Positions 31,801-34,800 of a DNA stretch of 64,000 bases are shown here, in pieces. Below the pieces are notes generated by a model, which was not told the DNA's origin, made no database searches, and worked only from the letters and a program-made list of their open reading frames with translations. How positions within the stretch are numbered: position 1 is the first letter of the stretch; the number at the start of each line of letters is the position of its first letter. Made by a program: the position numbers and the translations under genes. The DNA comes from Cristatella mucedo (taxonomy: Eukaryota > Bryozoa > Phylactolaemata > Cristatellidae), in contig WPIO01000001.1 of NCBI GenBank assembly GCA_009760855.2, positions 13,707,001-13,771,000 on the forward strand. Direction: 5' to 3'.

Positions 31801-34800
31801 TCGGACTGCTGACTAATACAAATGACTTACTTTATTCTTATGCCCCAAAAAGTAAATAGTACGTCATCTCACACTACAGGAAAAAATGGAAATGCTAACT
31901 AACATATGGTCAGAAGTATCACGCACATACCCTACATGACTTAACTTCATTTTGGGAAAGCCAGAGATTTATCATGCCAAAAAACTATAACCCACGACTT
32001 CACATGATTAATCAGCAGTACATCATAGTATCAAGAAATTCTCACTCAGAAGCTGTTGGGTGCTGCTAGGGCGGCAATGAAGCTGAACACGCAGTCTGCA
32101 CGTGGTTGGGCAGGATCTCCCTTAATACTGACAAAGCACAATCAAGATTATAAACGAGGAGTGATCTTTATTTATGCCTGCTATTAGAATCACAGCTGGG
32201 ATGGCATGGCTCTTCAAGAATACTCTGTTAATGATTTTTGTTAAAGACGCGATTTTGCAAAATACAGATGGACCAAGGGATGTAGTAATTCCATCTGCAA
32301 ATGCCGCTCACGTTGTACATCTATGCTCAACTCCGCACGTGCCTTACTCGTCTCAGGAAAGTAGATAGTACTATCGGCAGATCCTTTGGCTTAGGCATAC
32401 TGCTGATCCCATGACGATACAAGAAGCATTAGCAGCACGTGCTTGATAAGATAACAACAGATCATAAATGCAGGTGGCTTATTTGACTAAGCTACATCTG
32501 CTGTTCACCAGTCCATCAAGTGAGGTCAACCTGTCTTCATAGCCCCCAAAGGAGAATTAACAGGTTTCTGTAGCTTAATAGAAACTGCTCTGCCGAACCA
32601 ACTGATCTTATAGGACTAACGATGGGAGTGGGTTACAATTACTAAGGGAGCTCCACAGGTTGGCGGCAGAATCCTTGGTATCTTGATAGTGTATCATGCT
32701 TGCCTGTACAAGTCGGCAGGGTTGGGGCCTTGAAATAACTAACCAGAAATTCCCAAGGGTAATGTTTGTTCAGGATTCCTGGAGCTTTGAATAGCACACA
32801 GCTATTTGTCCGGTGCAGCCGAATCCAGTATGTTTGTAATCGGTGGTTTGGTTATAAGCTTCTGCCTAATGGAATCCTTTAGCCCAGTGGTTCTCAACCT
32901 TTCTAATGCTTCGACCCTTTAATACCATTCCTCATGTTGCGGCGACCTCCAACCATAAAATTATTGCATGCAAAATGTGGAAATGCATGTTTTCTGATGA
33001 TCTTAGGTGACCCATGTGAAAGGGTCGTTCGACCCCCAAAGGAGTCGCGACCCACAGGTTAGCCCAAAGTACTGTGGAGGTTTATCTCTGGAAAACCTTG
33101 GACCTAAACTTAATAGGCGACTCATCGAATATCGACTTGACACTGAAATTTAAATTTACTGTCTTTCCCGGGTCCTGACCTAACAAGCACGGGAAGGACC
33201 TTTCTACCGGAAACATTTTATTGCTTTGACTACTCACTCCTTCATCGCCTCTTATTGCATCCCTTGTATAGTATGGACCTTCATCCGATTCAGTGCAACC
33301 GTGCAATCTGTGCCATTTGATGGTATGAAAATGCTCGGTGTAACACTATAGTGTGACTAGACTTGGCCAGCCGATGGCCAACGGGCTTTGTAGCACTGCA
33401 TGTTATTCAGATGTGGTTAAGTCGTATGTTAGCAGCTTTATTGTAACTAGTTTGCATAGTAAGCAGCTTTTTTAATAATCGAAATTCGGTGCAAACAAGC
33501 TATTCGACGTCCGACAGCTCAGTGCCGTGACCTCAGCCTGTAAACATGTGTTTAGCAACATGATATCTCTTTGGTTGATCAATCGTTGTGCATTTCAAGC
33601 TCGAATCTTTTGCTGTGCCACGGCTATGACAAGTACGATAGCAAAATGACAAGTTGCTTTAGCACTTAGTTACAGACATGATGTGGCATCCCGTTAATTG
33701 TAACTTGGTGGAATGAATAGTCAGTCATCATGCAAAATCGCTACCACGTGTGCCTTTTCTTACATCTATTACTACCTAGCAATAAGAAAGAATTCCTGTG
33801 TTCTGCCAGTACCATTACCCAGCATCTTGCCACATGCTGAAGGGGTAAAAGCAAATGTATGGAGGTTGCTTGGAGCAAGCATTCTCGACAGATAGACCTT
33901 ATGACACGATCCGGTGTAACCACAGCTGACACTCATCCGGTGTTCAGCCAATCACAAATGGCCCGTAGCTGGCAAAGATCTCCTGCTTTAGCAAACCTAT
34001 GTACTGTGGGTCTCAGACAAGCATTACAAAGAGTGGTAATCATACGTATTACCTTTCTCTATATGTAGCTGCCTTTACCTTCCAGTCGTTGGGTCTCAAA
34101 CTCTGCGTCTGTCTATAAAGTTTGGCTGTGTCCTGCTGTCCAGCTTTTGGCCGGCTGCCAACAGTTATCTCTAACCTTTGTCCCTCACACTATCACCAAC
34201 TTTGCTCAGCACCCTACCAATCTCTGCGGTCGTGGCCTCTTTCTCACAACTCTTGCTGTCTTTGCTCTCTGTCATTTCCATCCTAAGTAAGTTACCAAAT
34301 GTATTCGAACACGAAAACTAACAACCTGAAAGTACCACTACTAACAACCTGAAAGTCAGCTGCTTGTGACAGATGCCCGTTACACAAAATGTGCTATCTA
34401 AAGCAAGTGGGAGCACCAGACCAATGCTTACATGAAGTCGGCATATATCAATCAAGCACAGGATGACAGTGACACAAAGGTAGCCTGTCACCTCTAACCA
34501 TGTTATGCTTGCTGTCATTGAGCATGCTACCACTAACCATTCAATCAAGCTTCCTTTGCAGCAAATGTAAAGTGCCTAGAAAGAGATTGGGTTCTATGAG
34601 GGTGTTACAACAAATGTATTATTACTATTAGAGTATTGGCTCGGGATGATCAACATCTGAAAAGTGCAGTAAACCTGATTTAGGACAGTAATGGTCACAT
34701 AGCTAACTTAGCTGGAGGGTGTATAAATTGTTTAATAACAACACATGCCCAGTCTTTTGCAAGAGTATTCAAACAAATAGTGATGTAAAAAGCAATGGTC

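What the first reader, a model, noticed from the sequence alone, without database searches (positions are those of the whole stretch)
32885..33060. Short hAT element closely resembling vertebrate Charlie/SPIN-type MITEs
Across about 176 bp the order and wording of the sequence (CAGTGGTTCTCAACCTTTCT, GACCCTTTAATA, CCAACCATAAAATTATT, GGTCGTTCGACCCCC, GTCGCGACCCACAGG) fit my memory of non-autonomous hAT elements known for horizontal transfer among tetrapods and some invertebrates. Such closeness in an invertebrate-looking genome would suggest transfer.
Basis: partly seen in the sequence, partly recalled or inferred. Interest (0 to 1): 0.7.

Follow-up and report, generated by a model that had tools for sequence, protein, structure and literature searches.

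The report
Decayed SPIN-type jumping DNA in intron
A 176-base fossil that looks like a small cut-and-paste jumping element, of a kind known for crossing between vertebrates, snails and bugs, sits inside an intron of an ordinary gene in what is probably an invertebrate genome; such elements are already reported in snails, so it is most likely one more case.

Summary
Window 32885-33060 (+) begins with a hAT-type end (CAGTGGTTCTCAACC) and has no second copy in the 64 kb. It ends ACAGGTT, directly before AGCC; the left flank ends CTTTAGCC. The simplest reading is an 8-bp target-site duplication, with the outer tip of the right inverted repeat and part of the right duplicate lost in a 15-bp deletion. 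It lies antisense in an 8.0-kb intron of an AIFM3-like gene, so it belongs to this contig. No database copy of SPIN could be reached, so membership rests on recall. The own-genome search was asked 17 times and never answered, so copy number, age and transfer are untested. SPIN-like hAT elements are already in print for the snail Biomphalaria glabrata (about 1,000 copies; passage) and for Rhodnius (passages). Most likely a degenerate, non-autonomous SPIN-type MITE in an invertebrate: a new member of a known kind, modest interest.

The parts
32877..32884 (+). CTTTAGCC, left copy of the presumed 8-bp target-site duplication
   Evidence: read; TTAGCC recurs at the right edge (family D2)
32885..32900 (+). 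left terminal inverted repeat CAGTGGTTCTCAACCT
   Evidence: its last 5 bases complement the surviving AGGTT at 33056-33060; the right end of the recalled consensus aligns to it in reverse at 15 of 16
32885..32965 (+). left block of the element, 74 of 81 positions equal to the recalled SPIN/URR1-type consensus
32966..33006 (+). middle of the element, no confident alignment to the recalled consensus; where this copy's internal make-up differs from it
   Evidence: gapped and poor
33007..33060 (+). right block of the element, 52 of 54 positions equal to the recalled consensus; ends in a truncated right inverted repeat (AGGTT)
33059..33064 (+). TTAGCC, what is left of the right target-site duplicate (its TT shared with the element's last two bases)
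   Evidence: this 6-mer falls in a 13-base junction zone in 389 of 200000 random draws from the window, a test framed after seeing it
28736..36745 (-). 8010-bp intron of an AIFM3-like gene that holds the element (element on + strand, so antisense to the gene)
   Evidence: Rieske exon ends TTTGAG before GTAATC at 36746; next exon begins after CTAG at 28735, in frame; 30-residue Rieske piece E 1.6e-5

Best explanation
It is a dead, non-autonomous hAT transposon (a MITE) of the SPIN type. It is too short to encode a transposase; when it inserted, a transposase made elsewhere would have recognised its two inverted-repeat ends, cut it out and pasted it into this intron, duplicating 8 bp (CTTTAGCC). 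Shown: the left end, the truncated right end, the remnant of a flanking direct repeat, the intronic position, no second copy in the window. Inferred: the transposase in trans; the 15-bp deletion (from 11 bp of right inverted repeat with 4 bp of duplicate, to 13 with 2, depending on where the TT at the joint is put), which would leave this copy immobile; and the family name, which rests on a consensus recalled from memory. Arrival of the family in this host lineage by horizontal transfer is plausible from the literature on SPIN but was not tested.
For: CAG-starting end of 16 bp with complementary AGGTT at the other side; TTAGCC at both edges (389 of 200000 draws); end blocks equal to the recalled consensus at 126 of 135 positions; BLASTN E 2e-31 in the 64 kb and local score 151 against at most 26 in 193 control segments of the same window; insertion in an intron of a recognisable host gene; a SPIN-like hAT of about 1,000 copies in a snail (passage of PMC5440852).
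Against: The consensus was recalled after I had read the element, so it is not an independent test; over its whole length the BLASTN alignment is 157 of 215 with 39 gap positions, and the middle 41 bp do not align. The right inverted repeat and one duplicate are incomplete, so a full 8-bp duplication cannot be seen. No other copy was seen: none in the window, own genome not searched. Folding of the strand is not exceptional (z -1.43; 22 of 200 shuffles as good). Pattern scans found nothing in viral contigs and one chance match in genome contigs; these collections are not of animal genomes.
Confidence: 0.88

Rival explanations
1. It belongs to another Charlie-like hAT family, native to the host's phylum and vertically inherited, whose ends resemble SPIN.
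For: hAT elements are found across all the mollusc genomes analysed in PMC10294476 (passages); the middle 41 bp do not align to the recalled consensus.
Against: 126 of 135 end positions equal to the recalled consensus would be too close for an old, vertical relationship, if the recalled letters are right.
Confidence: 0.08
2. Vertebrate contamination or a chimeric contig.
For: SPIN is best known from tetrapods (recalled); no reads were available.
Against: The element is inside an intron whose flanking exons join in frame; a target-site remnant flanks it; CpG observed/expected is 0.59 for the window, 0.49 to 0.72 in its eight 8-kb parts, 0.59 in the intron.
Confidence: 0.02
3. Chance resemblance; not a mobile element.
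For: Single copy in the window.
Against: Score 151 against at most 26 in 193 control segments; hAT-like end plus edge repeat.
Confidence: 0.02

Closest known systems
SPIN (SPACE INVADERS) non-autonomous hAT elements, including rodent URR1 (names and letters recalled)
   Same: Left 81 bp and right 54 bp nearly the same as the recalled consensus (126 of 135); CAG end; MITE length
   Different: About 187 bp when intact, by inference, against 226 bp recalled; different middle; right tip lost
SPIN-like hAT of the snail Biomphalaria glabrata (PMC5440852, passages read)
   Same: SPIN-like hAT in an invertebrate genome
   Different: There about 1,000 copies; here one copy in 64 kb, genome not searched; sequences not compared, its letters were not available
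SPIN_NA elements of Rhodnius prolixus (PMC11614815, passages read)
   Same: Non-autonomous SPIN in an invertebrate, taken by those authors as transferred from vertebrates
   Different: Sequences not compared; transfer not tested here

Membership tests
hAT superfamily | short terminal inverted repeats, here of the kind beginning CAG (recalled) | tested here: inconclusive
   left end CAGTGGTTCTCAACCT intact; of the right end only AGGTT is left
hAT superfamily | 8-bp target-site duplication (recalled) | tested here: inconclusive
   CTTTAGCC on the left, TTAGCC on the right with its TT shared with the element; at least two outer bases lost with the tip
hAT superfamily | moved by a hAT transposase | not testable with these tools
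   element too short to code for one; own genome not searched for an autonomous partner
SPIN | end sequences near-identical to the SPIN consensus | tested here: inconclusive
   126 of 135 positions, but against a consensus recalled from memory
SPIN | many dispersed copies in the host, patchy distribution among hosts | not tested
   The genome search gave no answer in 17 requests

The most novel reading that the evidence does not exclude
The window is from an invertebrate lineage in which SPIN has not been recorded (for example a marine gastropod outside the pond snails), and SPIN reached it by a transfer of its own, so that the host range of this transposon is wider than printed and further routes, marine or parasite-borne, must be considered.
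Probability: 0.3. Interest if true: 0.5.

Novelty: new member of a known kind. Interest (0 to 1): 0.25.

Why it matters
SPIN is one of the best documented cases of a transposon crossing between phyla. Every further invertebrate host narrows the routes by which it travelled. A single degenerate copy in an unnamed host is a lead, not yet a case; with the host's name, copy number and divergence it could date an invasion.

Tried and rejected
Exact or lightly degenerate patterns from the element gave 0 matches in viral contigs and 0 then 1 in genome contigs. The one match, L001 in Paenibacillus woosongensis, shares 21 of 23 bases and otherwise only scattered matches of 22 bits or less among those shown: rejected as chance. 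BLASTN of the element: phages, 2 records of one phage with a 26-base match at E 0.5, rejected as chance; plasmids, none at E 0.01. Rfam at gathering scores and a tRNA scan of the window found nothing. A full-text search for three 15-base words of the element, each on both strands, found no paper. An earlier search on two sequence words and two SPIN phrases found 34 papers, 30 listed: those listed name SPIN, are about physical spin, or hold one short word in unrelated work. Strand folding was not exceptional, so no hairpin function is claimed. Three key SPIN papers are not held (Gilbert 2012, Gilbert 2010, Pace 2008); what I say of them is recalled or second-hand. Two more mollusc genome papers were opened by passages only: in PMC8079154 the word spin is a spin column, in PMC8848322 it is absent. 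An earlier count gave the lost duplicate as 2 bp beside an 11-bp tip; the correct sum is 15 bp in all (11+4 to 13+2), as reported here.

Full report
What is there. The stretch 32885-33060 reads as reported. It starts CAGTGGTTCTCAACCT and ends ACAGGTT, whose AGGTT is the complement of the AACCT in the start. In the recalled family the right end continues as the mirror of the left; here the sequence instead runs on AGCCCAAAG. The eight bases before the element are CTTTAGCC, and TTAGCC stands at the right edge. The direct repeat is 8 letters, TTAGCCCA; its last two are, on the left, the first two of the element and, on the right, flank, which I take as coincidence. The simplest history is an insertion with an 8-bp duplication followed by loss of 15 bp across the right tip, with TT common to both sides of the joint. 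TTAGCC falls in a 13-base junction zone in 389 of 200000 random draws from the window; the test was framed after seeing the match.

Is it more than chance. The exact 15-base end occurs once in the window; with up to 3 mismatches there are 4 matches against 1.81 expected, and 8 of 100 shuffles reach 4, so the end alone at that looseness is not informative. BLASTN gives E 2e-31, with 157 of 215 columns identical and 39 gap positions, nearly all in the middle; the further matches are one at 14480-14506 (E 0.011) and one at 62774-62786 (E 0.48), which I take as chance, and the left end of the element read in reverse. Without gaps the left block matches 74 of 81 positions and the right block 52 of 54. 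The middle 41 bp do not align. This is a strong lead, not a database test: I had read the element before I wrote the consensus down.

Where it lies. Minus-strand exons of an AIFM3-like gene run from a Rieske exon (CPWHGACF, about 36.8 kb) to about 13.2 kb (picked by eye). The Rieske piece passes Pfam's cut-off (25.2 bits against 20.3); three further exon stretches match pyridine nucleotide-disulphide oxidoreductase profiles at E 0.00052 to 9.6e-6, all three below the curated cut-offs. A by-eye join of seven exons matches 211 distinct PDB sequences at E 0.001 or better; best a bacterial-type FAD-dependent reductase, 2.8e-25, and AIFM1 at about 5e-15 among the 60 shown. The name AIFM3 rests on recall of its domain order. 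The Rieske exon ends before GTAATC at 36746 and the next exon starts after CTAG at 28735, in frame. The element is inside that 8010-bp intron, on the other strand. None of the 186 self-matches of the window at E 1e-5 touches 32500-33500, though other parts of the same intron do hold repeats, at about 31.0, 31.6, 34.5, 35.15 and 35.5 kb.

The host. The window also holds two stretches of an M14 carboxypeptidase (E 1.5e-6, 5.7e-14), a match to ribosomal protein L36 (E 1.9e-17) and a reverse transcriptase fragment (E 2.6e-9): with the split AIFM3-like gene, a nuclear animal genome. CpG observed/expected is 0.59, by recall too high for an amniote; fish are not excluded. Mollusc is my guess from general likeness; no call proves it, nor that the host is an invertebrate.

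What is known. [quoted passage not shown] Rhodnius carries SPIN_NA elements (PMC11614815, passages). The painted turtle genome has 385 SPIN elements (PMC4054807, passages). That Lymnaea stagnalis carries one of these families is recalled from Gilbert 2010, which is not held. Three searches that paired SPIN or SPACE INVADERS with snail or mollusc terms brought up no other mollusc case that I saw: 6 of 6 papers listed, 20 of 495, 15 of 119. Four of the mollusc papers listed besides PMC5440852 were opened by passages, and none speaks of the SPIN transposon in its main text; the others were seen as listings only. The library holds open-licence papers alone.

What could not be done. The own-genome search was asked 17 times and never answered, so copy number, age and autonomous partner are unknown. 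No SPIN letters from a database were reachable: the collections here hold viruses, prokaryotes, plasmids and phages, and their scans were empty or gave chance matches.

Verdict. A degenerate non-autonomous hAT element of SPIN type in an intron of a probably invertebrate genome; ordinary in kind, with transfer likely from the family's known history but not tested.

Noticed in passing
59044-59998: Near-palindrome of about 960 bp, 86.7% identical to its own reverse complement; a second, weaker one (72%) lies at 18527-19226, and the two regions are 69% alike: looks like a foldback-type mobile element family.
   Followed up: partly
42713-42909: Palindrome of about 200 bp, 90% identical to its reverse complement.
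   Followed up: no
21164-21697, 24887-25144, 38600-39094, 43477-43983, 47871-48319, 50263-51146, 55979-56783, 61105-61634: At least eight related copies, on both strands, about 70-92% alike in the listed pairs, that read like one end of a non-LTR retrotransposon family; a reverse transcriptase fragment (RVT_1, E 2.6e-9) lies beside one at 56854-57306. A shorter relative lies at 34483-34630 in the same intron as the element.
   Followed up: partly
51884-52432 (-): ORF with a full-length ribosomal protein L36 domain (E 1.9e-17), probably the nuclear gene of the mitochondrial protein.
   Followed up: no
30367-30478: Perfect (AT)56 array inside the same AIFM3-like intron.
   Followed up: no
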